This document shows positions 13,832 to 64,000 of a stretch of 64,000 bases of DNA, piece by piece. This DNA is from a virus: the IMG/VR virus record IMGVR_UViG_3300036780_000414, positions 18,796 to 82,795 of that record; one strand, written 5' to 3'. Each line of letters starts with the position of its first letter. Within the stretch, counting starts at the first letter, position 1. The notes below the pieces were generated by a model that was not told the DNA's origin, ran no database searches, and was given only the letters and a program-made list of their open reading frames with translations. The translations under genes were made by a program, and so were the position numbers.

Positions 13832-14400
13832 CCCTGTTCCTCCTTCGGCTCATGCAGCACTACCGATGCGGTCGCGGTCGGCATCGGCACGTTCCTGCAC
13901 GCGTAGCTGTTGTCGTCGTCCACCCACTCGTCCCCGTGCGGGCCTGGGCGCCAGTGCAGTCCCGCGCCGCAGTGCACGCAGGTACGGCCGTTCCGGCTGG
14001 CTCCCATCCGCCGTCTGGCGTCTTCAGCCCGCCGCGCTGCGCACCACAGGCAGTCGGGCTCAGTACCGAAGTGCTCCTCCCCGTGGGTGAACTCGTCCCG
14101 GCCGAACTCGCGCCCGTGTTCCCACACCTCCGCGTAGATCTCCGCGAACGTCATGCCGTCCTTATTAGCCAGCGCCTCAGTGACCGCGTGCTGCCGGGCT
14201 GCGGCCTCGATGCTCAGCTCACTGCCGCCGCTGTCACCTGCCGCATGGCTGTGGTCCTGGTCGCCGGGGAACCTCTCGTGCTTCGCGTCGTGCGCCCACA
14301 CCAGGTCCTCAGCAGGCCGCCCGTCCGGGTGCGCGATGCTGGTCAGCCTGACGCCGGGGTGCCTCGCGGCCAGGTGCGCGCGCAGCTCGCCCTCGTTCAC
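13828..14400 (-). CDS. zinc-motif hypothetical protein, 190 aa
   Basis: Central helical region (RQHAVTEALANKDGMTFAEIYAEVW), then DCLWCAAR and TCVHCGAGLHW, two CxxC pairs forming a probable zinc ribbon. The zinc part is C-terminal. ATG 14400 overlaps the stop of the DUF2637 gene, so both are made from one mRNA. Confidence 0.65.
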   Translation of the reverse strand: MNEGELRAHLAARHPGVRLTSIAHPDGRPAEDLVWAHDAKHERFPGDQDHSHAAGDSGGSELSIEAAARQHAVTEALANKDGMTFAEIYAEVWEHGREFGRDEFTHGEEHFGTEPDCLWCAARRAEDARRRMGASRNGRTCVHCGAGLHWRPGPHGDEWVDDDNSYACRNVPMPTATASVVLHEPKEEQG

Positions 14401-15686
14401 GATCCTGTTCCCTCACTGGTCGCAGCCGCTGCGACGGGAGGCGTCGCGATGGTCGCAGGTGCGACGCTGCCGGTCTCAGCCTGCGTATCCGTGCGACTCT
14501 TAGCGTCGCGGGCGCGTATGTCGTGGATACGCTGCGGCTTCAGGGCTGGGTAGCCGTGGTCGCGGAGGTGTCGCAGTGCGACCAGGTTTGAGTCCGCTGC
14601 GTCGGGGACGTTCGCGAGTACCCAGCGGATTGCGTCGGACTGAGACATCTGCGTAAGGTCCGGCGGCGCGGGTGCGTCATCCCGGTCCTCGTCGTGCGTC
14701 TCCTCGTCCTCATCCTGGTCGCGGTCAGTGTCGCGGCGGGTCGCACTGCCGCCGCCGTGTGCGTCACTATCGGTCGCAGCGGGTGCAAGCTGAGACGCGG
14801 CGAGTGCCTTCGCGAGTCGCAGCTTGATCGCCTCACGCCACGCGTCGAACGCTTCCCCTGGCTGGCCGAGGCCCGGCACGAACACCAGCAGCCCCAGCCG
14901 GGGCAGCGGCTCAACCCGCTCACGGCTCTTGATCCCGTGCTGCGCGCGGCGTGCCTCTCTGCGGGCGGCAGAGAGCACCAGGTGAACGATTGTGTACGCG
15001 GCAAGGCTCATGACGGGGAAGAACACTTCGGCCGTCACGTTGCCGCTCTGGAGCGCGTAGCGCCAGTTAATCCAGGCGCCTGTTGCCACCAGGCCAGCGG
15101 ACACCACCCGGAAGCCGAAACCGGACTCGCCCTTGTCGATCTGCATCAGGGCAAGGAGGGTGCAGGCCAGGGCGGCAACATCGAGTGCGACCGGCACCAT
15201 CAGGGCGCGGACCCACAGCCAGTGCAGGTCATTCAGTGCCCACTCGTACTCGCCGGTCCAGCTCATGTACCCGACGCAGAACAGTACGGCAGCTAGCGCC
15301 GCGTATGCGGCGATGCGGCGGCCGGTAGTCGCAAACCCGACGCGCTCATAATGGCGGCCGGTCGCATGCGACACCAGCTCGCGTGCCCGCTTACGCAGTG
15401 CGTCCCTGGCTGAGTCACGCTGGTCGCGGCGGGCGGCCTTGCGTGCGTCACGTGAGACCCTGGGCTGCGTCGCCTTGCGACCGTGGGGCGTCGCAGGTGT
15501 CGCGGGCTGAGTTGCCGGTGACTCGGGTTGCGTAGCCGGTGCGACCGGCTGCGTCTCCTCTTGAGTACCCGGTGCGCCGGTTGCGTCAGCTGGTGGTGTC
15601 GCACCTGGGGCCGGATGGTCGCTGTCTTCCTCACGGTGTCGCAGCTGCGTCCACGGTGGTCGCAGCTCCGTCGGCTTGAGTCGCAT
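14397..15686 (-). CDS. DUF2637 / SpdB-like membrane protein with flanking disordered arms
   Basis: 429 residues. Residues 1-120 are Pro/Thr/Ala/Gln-rich then Arg-rich. Four membrane helices lie at about 124-144, 160-182, 193-207 and 221-239. The tail (290-429) is Asp/Glu-, Thr- and Ala-rich with a small helical part (SQSDAIRWVLANVPDA). The layout fits DUF2637 proteins, common on Streptomyces plasmids and phages, some linked with plasmid spreading (Spd). The DNA is peculiar: GTCGCA/TGCGAC occurs 21 times, clustered in both arms, in several frames and using the otherwise rare codons CGA and TCG. It may act as a binding array as well as a gene. Confidence 0.75.
   Translation of the reverse strand: MRLKPTELRPPWTQLRHREEDSDHPAPGATPPADATGAPGTQEETQPVAPATQPESPATQPATPATPHGRKATQPRVSRDARKAARRDQRDSARDALRKRARELVSHATGRHYERVGFATTGRRIAAYAALAAVLFCVGYMSWTGEYEWALNDLHWLWVRALMVPVALDVAALACTLLALMQIDKGESGFGFRVVSAGLVATGAWINWRYALQSGNVTAEVFFPVMSLAAYTIVHLVLSAARREARRAQHGIKSRERVEPLPRLGLLVFVPGLGQPGEAFDAWREAIKLRLAKALAASQLAPAATDSDAHGGGSATRRDTDRDQDEDEETHDEDRDDAPAPPDLTQMSQSDAIRWVLANVPDAADSNLVALRHLRDHGYPALKPQRIHDIRARDAKSRTDTQAETGSVAPATIATPPVAAAATSEGTGS
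14419..15685. repeat. dispersed hexamer array GTCGCA/TGCGAC (21 copies)
   Basis: Starts of exact copies: 14419, 14430, 14452, 14460, 14492, 14570, 14577, 14740, 14773, 14816, 15186, 15328, 15361, 15367, 15476, 15490, 15540, 15598, 15638, 15659, 15680. Thirteen read GTCGCA and eight TGCGAC; 15361-15372 is the full 12-bp palindrome. One-mismatch copies (GTCGCG, TGCGTC) are also frequent. The membrane-helix part (14822-15327) has only one copy. Elsewhere in the window the hexamer appears sparsely. Confidence 0.85.
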
Positions 15687-15692
15687 GACTAC

Positions 15693-16070
15693 TCACCCCT
15701 CCCAGGCCACAGGCTCAGCGGTGATCGTCGTCCCCGGCCCGCGCACCCAGCGGGCCGCCGGCTTAACCTGGCGGCCGTCGATGCTCACCACGACACCGCC
15801 GGACTGGTACGCCTCGTACGCCCACAGGCCCGGCTCCTCGAACGTCACCAGGCGGGCGGTGACGAGTGCCTTGACCGGCAGGCTGTGCGGTGGGACCGCC
15901 ATCCGCAGGTCACGGACGACGCTGTAGTGCGCGCCTGCCTTCTGGAGCATCGCGTCAAGGTGGTTCTTCGTCTGGGCGACCGCGACCAGGTACGCCTGGC
16001 CGATGGTCCTGTCGCGGGTCAGCCACTCGTGCGGGACGATCGTCATGCCGCGTGAGACGTACAGCTTCAT
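15693..16070 (-). CDS. hypothetical protein, 125 aa
   Basis: ATG 16070 follows GAGAGAGGG. Starts MKLYVSRGMTIVPHEWL, then TIGQAYLVAVAQTKNHLDAML and beta-like C-terminal half. No motif recognised. Lies 6 bp upstream of the DUF2637 gene and probably shares its mRNA. Confidence 0.65.
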   Translation of the reverse strand: MKLYVSRGMTIVPHEWLTRDRTIGQAYLVAVAQTKNHLDAMLQKAGAHYSVVRDLRMAVPPHSLPVKALVTARLVTFEEPGLWAYEAYQSGGVVVSIDGRQVKPAARWVRGPGTTITAEPVAWEG

Positions 16071-16121
16071 CGGTGCCCTCTCTCCCTGGGTAGTCATCGG
16101 TTGGCGTCTCCTGTCTCTCGG

Positions 16122-27759: not shown

Positions 27760-28295
27760 TACGCTGTCCCTCTCTCGGTGTCGAGCTGCTGGCCGGTGCG
27801 TGACTCGGGGCACTGGTAGCAGCGGTAGGTGGCGTCCGGGTGGTGGCCGCCGCTGCTGACCAGCTCCCAGCGGTGCGGTTCGGCGCTGGTGCCGTGGGCG
27901 GGTGTCCAGGTGCAGGTGGCGTACCGGGTCCAGTGGACGAAATGGCTGCTGGCCCCGGTGTTGTGCGCGTGCTGCATCGCGTACGGGAGGACATGATGGT
28001 GGGTGGTCATGTGGTCGAGCCACAGCGGCTCATCCCACGCTGCGGTCAGGTCGCATGCGGCCTCAGCGTCGTCGTGGTCAACCTCGATCGCGCTGTACCC
28101 CTGGCTGCGCAGGTGCGCGGTCAGCTGCCCGGCGGTGCCGGTGAACGTCTCATCGGGGCCGGCTCCCGCGTGGTTGGCGTGGCTCTCGGTGCTGACGCAG
28201 GCCAGCCCCTCGACGCCGTGCGTGACGTGCGTGTCGTAGTACCAGGTGCGCGTGCCTGCTGGCACCTGGTGCTTGAACTTGAACTGCTCGCTCAT
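27759..28295 (-). CDS. hypothetical His-rich protein, 178 aa
   Basis: ATG 28295 overlaps the HerA-like stop (ATGA). His-rich strings (THGVEG, SHANHAGAG, DHMTTHHHVLPYAMQHAHN) and TYRCYQCPESR near the end. Several His could bind metal. Unknown. Confidence 0.6.
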   Translation of the reverse strand: MSEQFKFKHQVPAGTRTWYYDTHVTHGVEGLACVSTESHANHAGAGPDETFTGTAGQLTAHLRSQGYSAIEVDHDDAEAACDLTAAWDEPLWLDHMTTHHHVLPYAMQHAHNTGASSHFVHWTRYATCTWTPAHGTSAEPHRWELVSSGGHHPDATYRCYQCPESRTGQQLDTERGTA

Positions 28296-30124
28296 CGCCT
28301 CACCCTCTCTCTAACATCAGTGTACCACACACATGTAAGCAGTAGCGGGTGGCCGGGCGGTTCCTTTGAGCACCTGGTCACCCTGCACGGCGCCGCCCGG
28401 TAGCTGAACGCCTGCCCGTGGCCCGGTAACGACCTGACGGCAGGTGCCGCCTGACTCGCGAGGAAGAACACGTCAGCGGCCCGTATCCCCGTGCCGTCCT
28501 CGGTCACCAGGTTGTTGCTCCGCAAGGTTGACAGGTAAGAGCCGAAGGTGCTGCCCACCGGGTTGATGCCGGCGAGGGTCGCCAGGTCGGAACGGGAAAC
28601 TGGTTCCGGGTAGCGTTCCAGCAGGCAATCGAGCATCCCCCGCGCCCCGGCCTTGAGGACGCTGCGCCAGCGGGCGCGGATCTCCTCGGGCCTCGGCGGC
28701 GCGGCGTCCGCTGCGGCACCTGCGGCCGCCAGCCCGTCAGCCGTGATCACCACGAACACGCCGTCCTGGACGACCAAGCCGTTCATCCGCAGCGCCGAGA
28801 GATAGGAGCCGAAGGTGCTGCCGGACCCCTTGATGCCGGCAAGGGCGGCGAGCTGGCCACGGGTCATCTTCAGCGGGTGATGCCGTGCAAGCTGTTCGAG
28901 CATGTCCCGCGCGCCTGCCTTCAGCGCCCTCGAACCGCCGGCCGGCACCGGCCGGGCCACTTCACCATGCGACGGCTCCACAGCCTGGCGCTGCGGCTGC
29001 ACGGTTACCGGCGGCTTGGCGGCCCGGCTGAGCGCCAGTTCGACGCTCCCCGCAATATCCCGCAGGCCAGTGATGGCCTGCTCAAGCGCAGCGATGTCAC
29101 CGGCTGTCAGGACGGGCACCTCAACGCGCTCCGGTTCGCGGTGGCTAGCCTGGGCCAGCTGCGCGCGCAGCGTAGCGACTTCCCGGCGGAGGCTAGCAGC
29201 CGGGTCGTCGGGGACGCCGCCCTGTTGCAGCAGCACCGCCATCCGCTCAAGGTCTGCGGGGTTCACCGGCGCGAACCGGCGCGGCGTGACAGCCTGCTCG
29301 CCGACCTTCGGCGTAGCTGAGGAGTCGAACGTGCTGCGAGGGCGGACCTGGATCTTCCGCATGACTTCCAGCCAGCCCGGCGACCACACCCACGCTGTTC
29401 CTACGGGCAGCGACGGCAGGGAGTCCTTCAGCTCCCTCGCGTCCTCGTCGCTGGCGTGCAGCCGGATCCACTCGTCTATCGCGGCGACGTCGAGCTTGCC
29501 GAGCAGCCGCATCGCGATCAGTACCTCCACCTGCGAGCGGATCGCGGAGTGCAGCTGAGCAGGGCGCAGGGTGATGCTCGTTGAGCCGATGCCGGGCTTG
29601 CGGCCGCGCAGCACGATGTCCTCATAGGCGCCGAGCAGCCGGGGGTCACGCTCACCGGCCTGGCTGGCGAAGCGGTCTGCCTCGTCTATGACCAGGTGCA
29701 GCGGTTCCCGGTTCGCGCGGAACAGGCGCTCCATGAAATCGGTGGCGAACTTCCGCTGCTGCGTCTTCGACATCAGGAACATGTCCAGGACGACAGGTAG
29801 CCGCTCAGATGCCACCAGGTCCGCGACGGCTGTTCCCGACCTCGGGTCAAGTGGCAAGTCGGCGTGCTCACCGCCGAGGATCGTCACCGGCAGCCCTGGC
29901 CCCTGCCCGTCAGCGGAGGACCGCAGGCCCCACCAGGAGCCCATCGGGTCAAGCACGCACGCGGGCAGGCCCGCGCCGATCAGCTCCTCAACCAGGACTG
30001 ACGCAGTAGCGGTCTTCCCGCTGCCGCGCTTGCCGAAGATCAGGAACGTCTCGGTTACCGCGTCGATCGGCAATGCGAGGTCGCCTGCGATCCGCAGGTC
30101 ACTAGCTGCGGGCGCGGCTGGCAT
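28292..30124 (-). CDS. HerA/FtsK-like ATPase with two C-terminal winged-helix repeats
   Basis: 610 residues; ATG 30124 has GAGGAGG 6 nt upstream. Walker A GKRGSGKT at 31-38 and Walker B HLVIDEAD at 143-150 give a HerA/VirB4/FtsK-class P-loop motor, a family that translocates DNA. Then a helical part (160-395) and two copies of a winged-helix unit: 400-466 (LKAGARDMLEQLARHHPLKM ... GSTFGSYLSALR) and 489-556 (same pattern). Such C-terminal wings are how FtsK and TraB read short DNA motifs. The last 50 residues run through a promoter element and look unconserved. Could package, segregate or transfer phage DNA, or assist recombination; the GTCGCA array at 14419 is a candidate target. Confidence 0.75.
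   Translation of the reverse strand: MPAAPAASDLRIAGDLALPIDAVTETFLIFGKRGSGKTATASVLVEELIGAGLPACVLDPMGSWWGLRSSADGQGPGLPVTILGGEHADLPLDPRSGTAVADLVASERLPVVLDMFLMSKTQQRKFATDFMERLFRANREPLHLVIDEADRFASQAGERDPRLLGAYEDIVLRGRKPGIGSTSITLRPAQLHSAIRSQVEVLIAMRLLGKLDVAAIDEWIRLHASDEDARELKDSLPSLPVGTAWVWSPGWLEVMRKIQVRPRSTFDSSATPKVGEQAVTPRRFAPVNPADLERMAVLLQQGGVPDDPAASLRREVATLRAQLAQASHREPERVEVPVLTAGDIAALEQAITGLRDIAGSVELALSRAAKPPVTVQPQRQAVEPSHGEVARPVPAGGSRALKAGARDMLEQLARHHPLKMTRGQLAALAGIKGSGSTFGSYLSALRMNGLVVQDGVFVVITADGLAAAGAAADAAPPRPEEIRARWRSVLKAGARGMLDCLLERYPEPVSRSDLATLAGINPVGSTFGSYLSTLRSNNLVTEDGTGIRAADVFFLASQAAPAVRSLPGHGQAFSYRAAPCRVTRCSKEPPGHPLLLTCVWYTDVRERVRR
28319..28346 (-). promoter_or_regulatory. promoter with ACATGT element inside HerA-like gene end
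   Basis: Minus strand ACATGTGTGTGG then TACACT (28319-28324). It lies within the last codons of the HerA-like gene and about 25 bp before the start at 28295. Confidence 0.65.
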
Positions 30125-30296
30125 CTGCTTCCTCCTCAACAGCCCTGGCAACGGCCTCCTGCTCGTTGCAGTACACGGTCACCAGGTCAACGGCGACTTC
30201 ACTCATGCTCTTGCCGTTCCTCGCGGTGGCGGCCTTGAACCGCCTGCGCAGGTCGTCTGGGAAGCTACTGATCTCCAGCTTGTTCGGCCTGTCCAT
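30102..30296 (-). CDS. ribbon-helix-helix (Arc-type) protein
   Basis: 64 residues. KLEISSFPDDLRRRFKAATA then KSMSEVAVDLVTVY is the beta-helix-helix layout of Arc/CopG DNA-binding proteins. A Glu/Ala helix follows. It overlaps the HerA-like start by 23 bp, so the two are co-translated; a regulator or targeting partner is plausible. Confidence 0.7.
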   Translation of the reverse strand: MDRPNKLEISSFPDDLRRRFKAATARNGKSMSEVAVDLVTVYCNEQEAVARAVEEEADASRARS

Positions 30297-42902: not shown

Positions 42903-44234
42903 ATGCAGGACGATTACGAGCTACCCAGCGACATCGACGCGGAACGGTACCTGCTGGCATCGATGATGCAGAGCAGGGAAGCGATAGCCGCAGCAGCGGA
43001 GTACCTGGACCCCGGTGACTTCTACCGGGCGGCGCACCAGGTGATGTTCCGGGCGATGGTGTTCATGTTCGCGGCCGACGAGCGAACCGACCCGGTGACG
43101 CTGCGCGCGTGGATCACTGGCGACGGCGACATGAAGGTGTTCGGCCAGCAGGGCGCGGTCTACATCGCGGAGCTGTACGGGCTCCCGGCCAACCCCATCT
43201 CGGCGGTGCACTACGCGCGGCTGGTGCGCGCCGCAGCGCTGCGCCGCCGTGGCATCGAGCAGGCGCTGAAGTTCCGGCAGGCGCTGATGATCGAGTCCAA
43301 CGACCCGGATGAGATCCTGTCCCGCTATGACGCGCAGCTGGAGGCCGCCCGGCAGATCGCCGCGCCGCAGCAGCTCGCCGTGCTCGACTACGCCGCCGTC
43401 ACCGAGCGCGTCCACAAGGAGCACGCCCCCGTCGTGCCCGGCCTGATCGGCGAGCAGGACCGCGTAGTCGTCGTGGCTGAGGAAGGCGTCGGCAAGACAA
43501 CCCTCGCGCACCAGGTCGCGTTCTGCGCCGCCGCCGGCATTCACCCGTTCCAGTGGGGCACCCGGACCATCCCGAAGCGCGTGCTGATAGCCGACTTCGA
43601 GAATCCCGCGCTGGAGCTCGGCTCGCGGTTCTCGAAGCTGGGCGAGGCGGCGGCCCGCTACCCCGGCTGGGATGAGGGGAATGTCCGGTTCTACCTGCGG
43701 ATGGGCGGCATCAACCTGCTGCGCGCGCAGGACGCGTTCGAGTTCATGGACGCCATCCGCCGGTTCGAGCCGCACCTGGTGGTCGCCGGGCCGATCTACA
43801 AGATGATCACCGGGATCAAGCAGAGCGACGACGGGCTCCGCGCCCATGCGGCCGTCGCCGCGTTCTTCGACAAGGTGCGGGAACGGTACGGGTCGGCCGT
43901 CTGGCTGGAAGCGCACGCACCGTACGGGTCAGGCGGCCACCAGCGGGAGCTGCGGCCGGAAGGCTGGAACGGGTGGGCGAAGTGGCCTGAGTTCGGCCTG
44001 GCGCTCCACAAGGCGACGAAGGCGCACGGCGGCGACCAGGGCGCGGTGGAAGTCAGGCGGTTCCGCGGGGACCGGATCGCGTCCCGCCCGTGGCCGTCGT
44101 GGATGACCCGCAACCTGATGTTCCCGAGCAGCGGGTTCCCGTGGACCGGCTGCTGGGCGAAAGGCGTACTCGATACCCCGCTGGACCTGCGTGCCGAGGA
44201 CAACGGGTACGAGGACAAGCGCTATGGCGACTGA
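42903..44234 (+). CDS. replicative DnaB-type helicase (DnaB-N plus AAA_25 ATPase)
   Basis: 443 residues, ATG 42903 after GAGAGAGGGAG. Residues about 8-125 match the DnaB N-terminal domain (SDIDAERYLLASMM, VMFRAMVFMFAADE, AVYIAELYGLPANP). A RecA-like core follows with Walker A AEEGVGKTT (192-200), strand RVLIADFENP and Walker-B-like HLVVAGPIYKM (291-301), typical of AAA_25 helicases of actinophages. No primase domain. Unwinds the phage fork. Confidence 0.85.
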   Translation: MQDDYELPSDIDAERYLLASMMQSREAIAAAAEYLDPGDFYRAAHQVMFRAMVFMFAADERTDPVTLRAWITGDGDMKVFGQQGAVYIAELYGLPANPISAVHYARLVRAAALRRRGIEQALKFRQALMIESNDPDEILSRYDAQLEAARQIAAPQQLAVLDYAAVTERVHKEHAPVVPGLIGEQDRVVVVAEEGVGKTTLAHQVAFCAAAGIHPFQWGTRTIPKRVLIADFENPALELGSRFSKLGEAAARYPGWDEGNVRFYLRMGGINLLRAQDAFEFMDAIRRFEPHLVVAGPIYKMITGIKQSDDGLRAHAAVAAFFDKVRERYGSAVWLEAHAPYGSGGHQRELRPEGWNGWAKWPEFGLALHKATKAHGGDQGAVEVRRFRGDRIASRPWPSWMTRNLMFPSSGFPWTGCWAKGVLDTPLDLRAEDNGYEDKRYGD

Positions 44235-52053: not shown

Positions 52054-53024
52054 CACCGCACCCGGATCCCGTGGCCCGGATGCTGGTCAGCTACTACTAC
52101 TGGCGCAAGCGGGACCTTTCGCAGCTCGACAAGATGGCCGCCCCGCTCACCGCTGTGGGTGGTCACCTGGAGCTGTTCGCTGACTCGGGGGCATTCAGCG
52201 CGTACACGCAGCGGGGCGGCGGCGCGGCGATCCGGCGGGAAGAGTACGCGGCGTGGCTGACGGAATGGCAACCGCGCCTGCGGGTCATGGTCAACCTGGA
52301 CGTGATCGGCGATGCCGCCGGCAGCGCCCGCAACCAGCTGTGGCTTGAGAACCGGGGACTGAACGTGACGCCGGTCTACCACATGCAGTCCCCCGTGGCG
52401 GAGCTGGAGGCGCTGTGCCGCGATTACAGGTACATCTGCGTCGGCGGGACCGCCAGCCTGACCGGCGCACAGAAAACCGCTGCGACCGCACGGGCGATGA
52501 TCGTCGCCCGTGAGCACGGGACCGCCGTCCACGGCCTCGGCCGCTCCTCAGCTGACGAGCTGTCCGCGATCGGCTTCTACTCCGTTGACTCAACCACGTG
52601 GATGCAGGCCGCCCGTTACGGGGACATTCACCTGTTCGACGGCCGGACGCTGCGCCGCCTGCCGATCCGCAAGGCGGTCAGCGAACCCGCGCTGATCCGC
52701 CGGCACGGCGGCGACCCGCAGCGGATGTGCCGCCCCGACTACGCGAACCTCCAGTACCGCAACCGCAAGGACCCCGCCCAGTACGCCTCTTACCGCAGGG
52801 AGAACGATGAGGTCGTTTTCATCGCCGGGGTCGCGTGGAAGCGGTTCGAAGCGCACCTGCGCCGCCGTCACCAGGTGCCTCCTCCCCCAGGTCACGAGAC
52901 AAACGGCACAAATGTGTGGTTCGCTGACGACAACATGCTGCACCAGCAGCAGATGATCGCGGCCGTCGCGTGGCTCGCGTCATCACCGTTACGGCCCGGC
53001 GCTAACTGGGAGGGAAAGCGATGA
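52050..53024 (+). CDS. dpdA: DpdA-like 7-deazaguanine DNA transglycosylase, copy 2
   Basis: 324 residues, ATG 52050 overlapping copy 1 (ATGA). Both catalytic Asp are kept: Asp45 in LFADSGAFSAY and Asp180 in SVDSTTW, plus VGGTASLTG and HGLGR. It differs from copy 1 mainly in the C-terminal third (DPQRMCRPDYANLQYRNRK) and tail. Both copies look active, so they may form a heteromer like eukaryotic QTRT1/QTRT2 or recognise different DNA sites. Confidence 0.85.
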   Translation: MTPHPDPVARMLVSYYYWRKRDLSQLDKMAAPLTAVGGHLELFADSGAFSAYTQRGGGAAIRREEYAAWLTEWQPRLRVMVNLDVIGDAAGSARNQLWLENRGLNVTPVYHMQSPVAELEALCRDYRYICVGGTASLTGAQKTAATARAMIVAREHGTAVHGLGRSSADELSAIGFYSVDSTTWMQAARYGDIHLFDGRTLRRLPIRKAVSEPALIRRHGGDPQRMCRPDYANLQYRNRKDPAQYASYRRENDEVVFIAGVAWKRFEAHLRRRHQVPPPPGHETNGTNVWFADDNMLHQQQMIAAVAWLASSPLRPGANWEGKR

Positions 53025-54007
53025 AGCCGTCAGAGCATTTCCGGTTCACCGTGCAGGAGCACGACCTGCTGACAGGGGCACTCGCGGTACTGCCGGACAT
53101 CGGCGTGCTGATGCAGAAGACACCGAGCACCACGCTCAAGCGGTGGGGGGCAGTCCTCCACCATGACGACCGGACACTCCGGGCGCTGCGCGGCGTACCC
53201 GGCCTGGGCGCGGCGTGGGCAGCCCACATGGCCCAGGACGAGATCAGCCACCCACCGGGTACCTACGGGCTACCTGAAGCGGCAGGCGTCCCCCAGGACC
53301 CGGTGATCGCGTACTCAGGCGGACCTGACTCGTTCATCGCCTGGCGGCTCCTCGGCCACCCGGAAGCGGTCTACCTGGACTTCGGCAACCAGGCCGGCCA
53401 GGTGGAGAAGTACCGGGTGCAGCTGGCCAGCGACAAGTTCGCTGACCCGGACCGGCCGGTTACCTTCATGCCCAGCTACAGCATGCGGGAACTGTCGACC
53501 GGCTGGATCCCGTACCGGAACCTCCGCATCATCCTCGCGTGCGCTGAGGTCGCCCCCGATGTCGTCCTCGCCCGGATCGCCGAATGGGGGCCGGATAAGA
53601 ACCCCGGCTTCTTCCGCCGCACCGAACGGCTGCTCGCCAGCTCACGCGGCGGCCACTTCCAGGCTGCCGCGAACCTCCCGAGGGTCCGCATCCACACACC
53701 GTTCGGTCACCTCACCAAGACGCAGCTGGTCCGCCGCTACCTCCAGGTGTTCGGCCCGGACGCCGCCGACGACCTGGTCCAGTACACCTGGTCCTGCTAC
53801 GGCCCAGGCCCGCTGTTCTGCGGCCAGTGCGGCGGCTGCTGGTGCCGGTGGGTGGCGTTCCACCAGAACGGCATCCTCGAAGAGGACCGCTACGCGCAGC
53901 ACCCGGAACGCGCCGCCTACTACCGGCGGCTGGACTGGCGGGACTTCCGCCCCGGCATGGCCGGGATGTACCTCAAGCGGGCGTGGGAAATGCGGGGGCT
54001 GGGCTGA
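53021..54007 (+). CDS. queC: QueC-like 7-cyano-7-deazaguanine (preQ0) synthase with N-terminal extension
   Basis: 328 residues. PP-loop YSGGPDS (98-104), VYLDFGNQ, and the four zinc Cys 259, 267, 270, 273 (CYGPGPLFCGQCGGC) identify QueC, which converts CDG to preQ0 with ATP. Typical QueC is about 220-240 residues; here 92 residues precede the PP-loop (LLTGALAVLPDIGVLMQKTP...), predicted helical and unlike known QueC. The extension might dock another pathway protein or DpdA. Confidence 0.85.
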   Translation: MKPSEHFRFTVQEHDLLTGALAVLPDIGVLMQKTPSTTLKRWGAVLHHDDRTLRALRGVPGLGAAWAAHMAQDEISHPPGTYGLPEAAGVPQDPVIAYSGGPDSFIAWRLLGHPEAVYLDFGNQAGQVEKYRVQLASDKFADPDRPVTFMPSYSMRELSTGWIPYRNLRIILACAEVAPDVVLARIAEWGPDKNPGFFRRTERLLASSRGGHFQAAANLPRVRIHTPFGHLTKTQLVRRYLQVFGPDAADDLVQYTWSCYGPGPLFCGQCGGCWCRWVAFHQNGILEEDRYAQHPERAAYYRRLDWRDFRPGMAGMYLKRAWEMRGLG

Positions 54008-62547: not shown

Positions 62548-62737
62548 GCCAGAGGCCGTGTCCTGGCCTGACGGTGAACCTGTCACCCCGTGGGCCGACC
62601 CGTGGCATGACGTGATGGGTGACATCCGGCGGGTAATGAGCGGGCCGATGACAGGTAACCCGCTGCTCGACGAGGCAGCCGGCCGTCAGCGCGAGTTCTG
62701 GCTGACTGACGCAGGCGGCGAAGAGGACGATGGCTGA
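62540..62737 (+). CDS. small acidic protein, 65 aa
   Basis: GTG 62540. Trp/Pro/Asp-rich (WPDGEPVTPWADPWHDVM) and helical middle. Immediately before the terminase-like gene. Unknown. Confidence 0.55.
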   Translation: MAEPEAVSWPDGEPVTPWADPWHDVMGDIRRVMSGPMTGNPLLDEAAGRQREFWLTDAGGEEDDG

Positions 62738-63647
62738 CCTTGACCCTCCCGGCTACCTCAACGACCGGCAGCGCGCCCTCTGGGTCGCGACCGTGCAGCA
62801 GCTCCTGGCCGCCGGGTCCACCGCACGCGTCAACCCGGATGCGCTCCTCGCGTACGTGTCCGCAGTCGCCACCCATGAGCGGGCCACTGCGCTCCTCAAC
62901 CAGACCGACATCCTCGTTCAGCGGGACGGCAAGCCGGTCGCTAACCCGGCCCTCGAAGTGCAGCGCACCGCCGCAGCGACCATCGCCCGTTTCACCAGGC
63001 AGTTCGGCCTCAACCGGCCCGCCCCCATGCAACCGCCAACCCCCGTCCAGCGCGGACGCTGGTGCGAGGAGCACAAACGGTGGGAGTGCACCAAGAACCG
63101 CAAGCGCGGCGGCATCTGCCACTCCCCCGCCGTCCTCGGCTACGAAGCCTGCCGGATGCACGTCGGGAAGAACGTGGGCAGCGACCCGGTGCACATCCTC
63201 GCGATCGAGCAGCAGCGGAACCCGCTCGCTGGTGAGCCGCTGGACATCGGCCCGGCTGAGGCGCTGCTGTGGCGGGTCCGTGTCCTGGCGGGTGAGGTCT
63301 CCCGGCTGGACATGACGATCGCCGGGCTGGAGCAGGACGAGCTGGTGTTCGGCGTCACCCGTGAGGAGGTGTCGGAGACGGCGGACGGGCCGATGACGAA
63401 GGTGACCAGTGAGGCGCGGCTGAACATGTGGCTGGTCCTGCGGGCGCAGCGGGAACGCGCGTTGCAGGACGCGTGCGAGGCTGCTTTGCGGGCGAACATC
63501 GAGGAGCGGCTGGTGCGGCTGGCTGAGCAGCAGGGCGCGGCGATCCACCGTCTGCTGCTGACCGTCCTCGGTGACTTCGGCATCGCGCAGGACGACCCGC
63601 GCATCGCGCAGGTGATCCCGATGCGGCTGCGGGAGCTGACCGCGTGA
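62730..63647 (+). CDS. terminase small subunit-like protein
   Basis: 305 residues, ATG 62730. N-terminal helices (YLNDRQRALWVATVQQL), RAKRG-like basic region RGRWCEEHKRWECTKNRKRGG and CRMHVG, echoing the 'CxxHGGxxP' of actinophage small terminases; then VRVLAGEVSRLDMTIAGLEQ and a long coiled coil. Recognises packaging sites in that family. No ATPase or nuclease motif, so it is not the large subunit. Confidence 0.6.
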   Translation: MADLDPPGYLNDRQRALWVATVQQLLAAGSTARVNPDALLAYVSAVATHERATALLNQTDILVQRDGKPVANPALEVQRTAAATIARFTRQFGLNRPAPMQPPTPVQRGRWCEEHKRWECTKNRKRGGICHSPAVLGYEACRMHVGKNVGSDPVHILAIEQQRNPLAGEPLDIGPAEALLWRVRVLAGEVSRLDMTIAGLEQDELVFGVTREEVSETADGPMTKVTSEARLNMWLVLRAQRERALQDACEAALRANIEERLVRLAEQQGAAIHRLLLTVLGDFGIAQDDPRIAQVIPMRLRELTA

Positions 63648-63700
63648 GCAGCGCCGCGCCTACACCAGCGACATGAGCTGACCGCGCTACCCTGGCAGGC

Positions 63701-64000
63701 ATGGCGATCAGACCAGCCAAGAACCCCGTCCCGCGCCTCAGCGCCGGCCAGTCGTTCCCCCGCGTGGAGCTGCCGCCGTTCGAGCCGCTCCAGCGTGAAG
63801 ACGTGACGCTCGCCACCCCGGCCGTCATCCTGCAAGGTGAGCGGGACGCGGCCTACCGGGTGATCAACGCGCTGGTACGCAGGTACGCGGGCGGCTCAGC
63901 GTTCCTCGACGCAGGCGCCGCTGACGTGGAGCAGCCGGTGGTGACAGTGGAGCTCATGCGCGACGCGGACGGCTTCACGATCACTACCCGGCCGCTGTGA
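63701..64000 (+). CDS. hypothetical protein, 99 aa
   Basis: ATG 63701, stop TGA ending exactly at the window edge. FEPLQREDVTLATPAVILQG, RDAAYRVINALVRRY, then beta strands (VVTVELMRDADGFTIT). Follows the terminase-like gene; unknown. Confidence 0.6.
   Translation: MAIRPAKNPVPRLSAGQSFPRVELPPFEPLQREDVTLATPAVILQGERDAAYRVINALVRRYAGGSAFLDAGAADVEQPVVTVELMRDADGFTITTRPL

What the first reader, a model, noticed from the sequence alone, without database searches (positions are those of the whole stretch)
14419..15685. 21 copies of GTCGCA/TGCGAC packed in the DUF2637 gene
Exact hexamers occur about once per 60 bp here but only sparsely elsewhere. They fall in several coding contexts (Val-Ala, Leu-Arg, Ala-Thr, Ser-His), with rare codons such as CGA and TCG, and include a 12-bp palindrome GTCGCATGCGAC. 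They are absent from most of the membrane-helix part. Selection seems to act on DNA, not protein. Possible roles: centromere, transfer or packaging site, nucleoid anchor.
Basis: seen in the sequence. Interest (0 to 1): 0.8.

Follow-up and report, generated by a model that had tools for sequence, protein, structure and literature searches.

The report
DNA-site array inside phage membrane gene
A phage gene for a membrane protein also carries, written through its codons, dozens of copies of a short DNA motif spaced one DNA turn apart; related phages keep the array but use a different motif, which suggests a landing strip that ties phage DNA to the cell membrane through the protein the gene encodes.

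Summary
All 21 GTCGCA/TGCGAC copies lie inside one 1,290-bp DUF2637 gene; 1.4-2.6 are expected from codon choice. The motif is broader (TGCGWC, 33 sites; 51 with variants), and sites recur every 10.7 bp across both hydrophilic tails (phase score 32.6 of 51; null maximum 12.2), so they sit on one DNA face. About three quarters of the synonymously possible TGCGAC slots in the tails are filled. The nearest relative found, a syntenic sister phage (52-56% identical protein), keeps the array but with 17 TGCGTC and no TGCGAC. All 14 Streptomyces BE-type phage loci retrieved (some near-duplicates) carry 10-21 GTGACA in the same gene although its disordered tail is hypervariable. A few plasmid or integrated-element genes have other arrays; most chromosomal DUF2637 genes have none. 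The protein is predicted as TM helices, a disordered array-encoded tail and a small C-terminal helical (HTH-like) domain. Best reading: a membrane-anchored DNA-binding protein whose own gene is its binding array, tethering or segregating phage DNA. Self-embedded sites are known for SpdA2/sps and ParT/parS of Streptomyces plasmids; a dense, helically phased array in a phage membrane gene appears new. Binding and function are untested.

The parts
14397..15686 (-). DUF2637 gene (429 aa) that holds the whole array
   Evidence: PF10935 E=4e-11, phrog_10376 E=2e-10; GC3 0.75 against mostly 0.82-0.90 in neighbouring minus-strand genes
15328..15685 (.). Array half 1, N-terminal hydrophilic tail: 16 TGCGWC sites plus variants, period 10.7 bp
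14419..14821 (.). Array half 2, C-terminal tail: 15 TGCGWC sites plus variants, period 10.65 bp
15361..15372 (.). 12-bp palindrome GTCGCATGCGAC (two abutting sites)
14832..15326 (-). Membrane-helix core (about residues 121-285), nearly free of sites
   Evidence: 1 of 6 possible TGCGAC filled; hydropathy
14472..14654 (-). C-terminal small helical domain (about residues 345-405), the proposed DNA-binding domain
   Evidence: AlphaFold2 of residues 325-410, mean pLDDT 80, pTM 0.60, helices 25-35, 37-41, 43-52, 60-81 of the fragment; no significant PDB match
15693..16097 (-). Conserved upstream neighbour, 134 aa, function unknown; 49% identical in the sister phage at the same place
   Evidence: no Pfam match

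Best explanation
The gene is two things at once: it encodes a membrane protein with a C-terminal DNA-binding domain, and its own coding DNA is that protein's multi-site binding platform. Sites (TGCGWC, tolerant of a few changes) recur once per helical turn, so many subunits could sit side by side on one face of the DNA, each held by its transmembrane helices. This would pin phage DNA at the membrane, for localised replication, segregation of phage genomes along hyphae, or placement for take-over. Shown: the array, its DNA-level selection, its helical phase, its persistence with changed motifs in relatives, and the predicted architecture. Inferred: that the C-terminal domain binds the array, and that tethering or segregation is the function.
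For: Array beyond codon-based nulls. Period 10.7 bp, not a multiple of 3, so not a protein repeat: phase score 32.6 of 51 sites, codon-frame-preserving null maximum 12.2 in 400; the variants alone (23 sites, TGCGAC excluded) give the same period. Sister phage G255 (syntenic, many proteins 58-90% identical): 17 TGCGTC against 0.5 expected from the flanks, no TGCGAC, and GCGTC (36 copies) phased at 10.6 bp (score 18.0; null maximum 10.6). All 14 BE-type phage loci keep 10-21 GTGACA (3-7 expected) while the disordered tail is hypervariable and the flanking TM and C-terminal domains are conserved. In each phage examined the DUF2637 gene is the top gene for embedded motifs. Predicted layout for the BE protein: TM helices, disordered array-encoded tail, three-helix C-terminal domain whose best plausible fold match is the helix-turn-helix of a small terminase (probability 0.75, E 3.2, so weak). 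The S. noursei plasmid gene and a plasmid gene not named DUF2637 share about 50% of the C-terminal domain and also share the motif GGCACA. Precedents for a site inside the binder's own gene: SpdA2/sps (PMC4170104), ParT/parS (PMC12260392).
Against: No binding data. The window's C-terminal domain has no significant structural match and no Pfam match. Most sampled Streptomycetaceae/Actinomycetes DUF2637 genes have no array (about 3 clear cases of 59), so the array is not intrinsic to the family; a plasmid gene (L033) with a 58% identical C-terminal domain shows only a weak signal. In BE phages and plasmids helical phasing is weak or absent, and in the sister phage TGCGTC alone is not phased. The conserved 134-aa neighbour could be the binder. 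In the plasmid cases a ParA gene and a possible RHH gene lie upstream, and a coiled-coil gene downstream shares the motif.
Confidence: 0.5

Rival explanations
1. The array is a centromere or tether for a different phage-encoded binder (for example the conserved 134-aa neighbour or an unrecognised ParB/ParR/RHH-like protein), and the DUF2637 gene merely hosts it.
For: The neighbour is conserved beside the gene in the sister phage. In the S. noursei plasmid a ParA-like gene and a 131-aa gene with a weak centromere-binding-protein match (below cut-off) lie upstream of the array gene.
Against: No ParA-type ATPase in the phage record. The 134-aa protein has no DNA-binding match. In BE phages the upstream neighbour is an unrelated ferritin-like protein. 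The membrane protein with a C-terminal domain is the partner common to phage and plasmid arrays.
Confidence: 0.25
2. Replication-origin iterons embedded in a gene, as in lambdoid O genes.
For: Multiple phased short sites inside a coding region resemble iterons.
Against: The gene lies far from the DnaB-like helicase gene (42903-44234); a membrane protein is not a known initiator; sites point in both orientations; local GC is no lower than around it.
Confidence: 0.1
3. Packaging (pac) or conjugation-like transfer site read by the terminase or by the HerA/FtsK-like ATPase at 28292-30151.
For: Clustered short sites resemble TraB recognition repeats; the BE-phage C-terminal domain resembles a small-terminase helix-turn-helix; the record has a HerA-like gene.
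Against: No clear orientation bias (13 to 8), unlike translocase-guiding sequences; BE phages have defined ends outside the gene (PMC5764925); fragments with relatives of the HerA-like protein show no array or DUF2637 match, although they may be incomplete; DUF2637 genes next to FtsK/TraB-like genes on plasmids pPR2 and NBC_00691 have no array.
Confidence: 0.07
4. By-product of protein repeats, unusual codon usage or foreign origin of the gene.
For: The gene has atypical codon use (CGA 0.12 against 0.02) and GC3 0.75.
Against: Synonymous and codon-usage nulls fail by about tenfold; sites occur in all frames and both orientations with a 10.7-bp period; the codon bias is what the sites would produce.
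Confidence: 0.02

Closest known systems
SpdA2/sps of Streptomyces plasmid pIJ101 (PMC4170104)
   Same: A DNA-binding protein of an extrachromosomal Streptomyces element whose binding site lies inside its own coding region; affects plasmid stability.
   Different: One to three palindromes, not dozens of phased hexamers; not described as a membrane protein; on plasmids, not phages; no sequence relation shown.
ParA-ParT-parS of SCP2 (PMC12260392)
   Same: Centromere site inside the gene of the protein that binds it, in Streptomyces.
   Different: A single 18-bp inverted repeat loading a sliding clamp, with a ParA partner; no ParA found in this phage.
SpdB2 of pSVH1 (as described in PMC4170104)
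   Same: Integral membrane protein of a Streptomyces element that binds DNA; SpdB2 of SLP2 is reported to affect stability.
   Different: Binding is non-specific and it works with TraB; no site array reported.
Phage phi29 p16.7 (from general knowledge; not tested here)
   Same: Phage membrane protein with a C-terminal DNA-binding part that organises phage DNA at the membrane.
   Different: Single TM segment, no sequence-specific array in its gene known to me.
R1 parC/ParR and lambda O iterons (from general knowledge)
   Same: Arrays of short sites near the helical repeat; lambda iterons lie inside a gene.
   Different: parC is non-coding; lambda O is an initiator, not a membrane protein; far fewer sites.

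Membership tests
DUF2637 (PF10935) protein family | Match to the family profile above its cut-off | tested here: met
   43.4 bits against cut-off 22.8; 44.9 bits in six-frame search
SpdA/sps system | Palindromic sps motif in the gene of an SpdA-type protein | tested here: not met
   Array is mostly non-palindromic TGCGWC hexamers; Pfam and PHROGs scans gave only DUF2637 and phrog_10376; no direct SpdA comparison was run
Type I ParABS / ParATS partition system | ParA-type ATPase beside the centromere-binding protein | tested here: not met
   No AAA_31 match in the 82.8-kb record, controls positive in 14 of 14 genomes; the record may be incomplete
Centromere-like array (functional class) | Many copies of a short motif clustered once per genome with helical phasing | tested here: met
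Centromere-like array (functional class) | Specific binding by a cognate protein and an effect on segregation | not testable with these tools
   needs binding and maintenance assays
TraB/clt-type transfer locus | Repeated 8-bp TraB recognition sequences with TraB nearby | tested here: not met
   6-bp core in both orientations; no adjacent FtsK/TraB gene among the neighbours scanned
Membrane-anchored DNA-binding protein | TM helices plus a DNA-binding domain | tested here: inconclusive
   TM helices predicted; C-terminal domain helical, helix-turn-helix match weak for BE phages, none significant for the window

The most novel reading that the evidence does not exclude
A class of self-addressing phage and plasmid genes: a membrane protein whose disordered tails exist largely to carry, in their codons, a dense phased array of the protein's own DNA-binding sites, so that protein, anchor and centromere are one gene, and the motif co-evolves with the binding domain.
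Probability: 0.4. Interest if true: 0.9.

Novelty: new variant of a known kind. Interest (0 to 1): 0.78.

Why it matters
It offers a plausible function for a widespread uncharacterised actinobacterial membrane family, at least in some mobile elements, and a testable one-gene route to tethering phage DNA at the membrane. It also shows a protein's disordered tail whose sequence seems to be dictated mainly by DNA sites: in BE phages tail residues such as VT and RDK follow from GTGACA. Lineages with different motifs make specificity swaps directly testable.

Tried and rejected
Period evidence from genes L041 (CGAAAC) and L052 was dropped: both encode long coiled-coil-like repeats, and a 21-bp heptad spacing mimics two helical turns. 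My first surveys of genomic genes used wrong frames or strands and were redone with orientation handled; L083 stayed positive. Spd/TraB transfer site: no clear orientation bias. Restriction or modification target linked to the QueC-like gene: does not explain confinement to one gene. Host-protein binding site: disfavoured because Streptomyces BE phages use GTGACA and plasmids of Streptomyces use GGCACA. Direct tblastn of the window protein to deposited phages found nothing, even at E=1; homologues were reached through the S. noursei plasmid protein. A search with the YqaJ protein gave no relatives.

Full report
What was checked. The window is bases 18,796-82,795 of an 82,795-bp virus record with phage portal, major head, tape-measure, RecT, YqaJ, DnaB-like and small-terminase genes. 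Permuting synonymous codons inside the gene gives 2.3 +/- 1.4 and never more than 9; resampling with the phage's codon usage gives 1.36. A scan of all hexamers in all gene-sized stretches ranks this cluster far above simulated genomes. No other gene of the phage approaches it (z 9.4 against at most 4.6).

The motif and its spacing. TGCGTC (12), TGCGTA (4), TGAGAC (4), TGAGTC (3) and CGCGAC (7) are also enriched, so the core is about TGMGWM. Successive sites of one orientation lie 9-12 bp apart, forward-to-reverse pairs about 13 and reverse-to-forward about 8, as expected for a site with its centre off the hexamer middle repeated once per helical turn. The phase score is 32.6 of 51 at a period of 10.7 bp; shifting each site by random multiples of 3, which keeps the reading frame, never exceeds 12.2 in 400 trials. 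Sites other than TGCGAC alone give the same period, and each tail on its own gives 10.65-10.7. The period is not a multiple of 3, so protein repeats do not explain it. The sites fill 20 of 27 synonymously possible TGCGAC slots in the tails but 1 of 6 in the membrane core; codon choices that are rare in the phage (CGA, GCA, ACA, AGT) rise accordingly.

Relatives. The nearest relative found, at 52-56% identity, lies in a 38-kb phage record (L101/G255) syntenic with this phage; many structural proteins are 58-90% identical, and the 134-aa gene upstream is conserved too. Its DUF2637 gene has 17 TGCGTC against 0.5 expected from the flanks, and no TGCGAC at all; the pentamer GCGTC (36 copies) is phased at 10.6 bp (score 18.0, null maximum 10.6), although TGCGTC alone is not significantly phased. 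The array is thus kept while the sequence read has shifted by a base. Streptomyces BE-type phages (Wofford, Jay2Jay, Yaboi and others) carry a distant DUF2637 gene: all 14 loci retrieved, some near-duplicates, have 10-21 GTGACA against 3-7 expected. In Yaboi 26 of the 40 copies in the first 45 kb fall in the 1-kb bin holding this gene's tail and the short stretch downstream. Across BE phages the TM part and the C-terminal domain are conserved, whereas the tail between them is hypervariable with many gaps; the motif is what is kept. Phasing there is weak.

Wider survey. The S. noursei plasmid gene L012, the Streptomycetaceae MAG gene L044 and a plasmid gene (L034) that is not named DUF2637 but has the same C-terminal domain all have GGCACA arrays; an actinomycete chromosomal element (L083) has CGAGACG, unphased. 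Most of 59 sampled DUF2637 genes have nothing comparable. Two cases with coiled-coil-like repeats were discarded. Arrays therefore seem concentrated in phages and some plasmids or elements.

Architecture. AlphaFold2 of the BE-phage protein gives helices consistent with membrane spans at 6-128, low confidence at 65-242 including the array-encoded stretch, and a confident three-helix domain at about 248-292; overall confidence is low (pLDDT 46.5). The domain's best plausible fold matches are small-terminase helix-turn-helix chains (probability up to 0.75, E-values above 3, so suggestive only). The window's own C-terminal domain models with pLDDT 80 as four helices but matches nothing significantly.

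Mechanism. The most economical reading is that the C-terminal domain binds the array in its own gene, and that the TM helices fix this nucleoprotein complex to the membrane. The lack of a clear orientation bias (13 to 8) argues against a directional translocase signal. Neither a ParA-type ATPase nor a tyrosine integrase was found in the record. What the tethering serves (replication site, segregation in hyphae, exclusion or take-over) is not decided.

Known comparators. SpdA2 of pIJ101 binds palindromes inside its own gene and affects stability (PMC4170104); ParT of SCP2 binds parS inside parT (PMC12260392). These make self-embedded sites an established arrangement in Streptomyces elements. 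Searches of the held library found one paper mentioning DUF2637 and none describing such arrays in BE phages; subscription journals are largely not held. I therefore file it as a new variant of a known kind, with the one-gene anchor-centromere reading as the novel case.

Noticed in passing
window 28292-30151 (-): HerA/FtsK-like ATPase with a weak winged-helix match at residues 425-475; relatives 41-67% identical in five other viral contigs, one of which also shares portal and head proteins.
   Followed up: partly
window 53021-54007 (+): QueC-like protein, suggesting 7-deazaguanine DNA modification in this phage.
   Followed up: no
window 62730-64000 and L002 1-860: Small-terminase-like gene near the right end and genes preceding the portal at the left end, so the record may be a circularly permuted, near-complete genome.
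   Followed up: no
L038:25506-26528 and L012:9359-10345: A coiled-coil gene just downstream of the plasmid array gene shares the CGGCAC/GGCACA enrichment, partly explained by its protein repeats.
   Followed up: partly
L020:3886-3960: In BE phages the GTGACA array continues past the stop codon into the short stretch before the next gene.
   Followed up: partly
L101:3287-3765: In the sister phage the GCGTC excess extends weakly upstream of the DUF2637 start into the neighbouring gene.
   Followed up: partly
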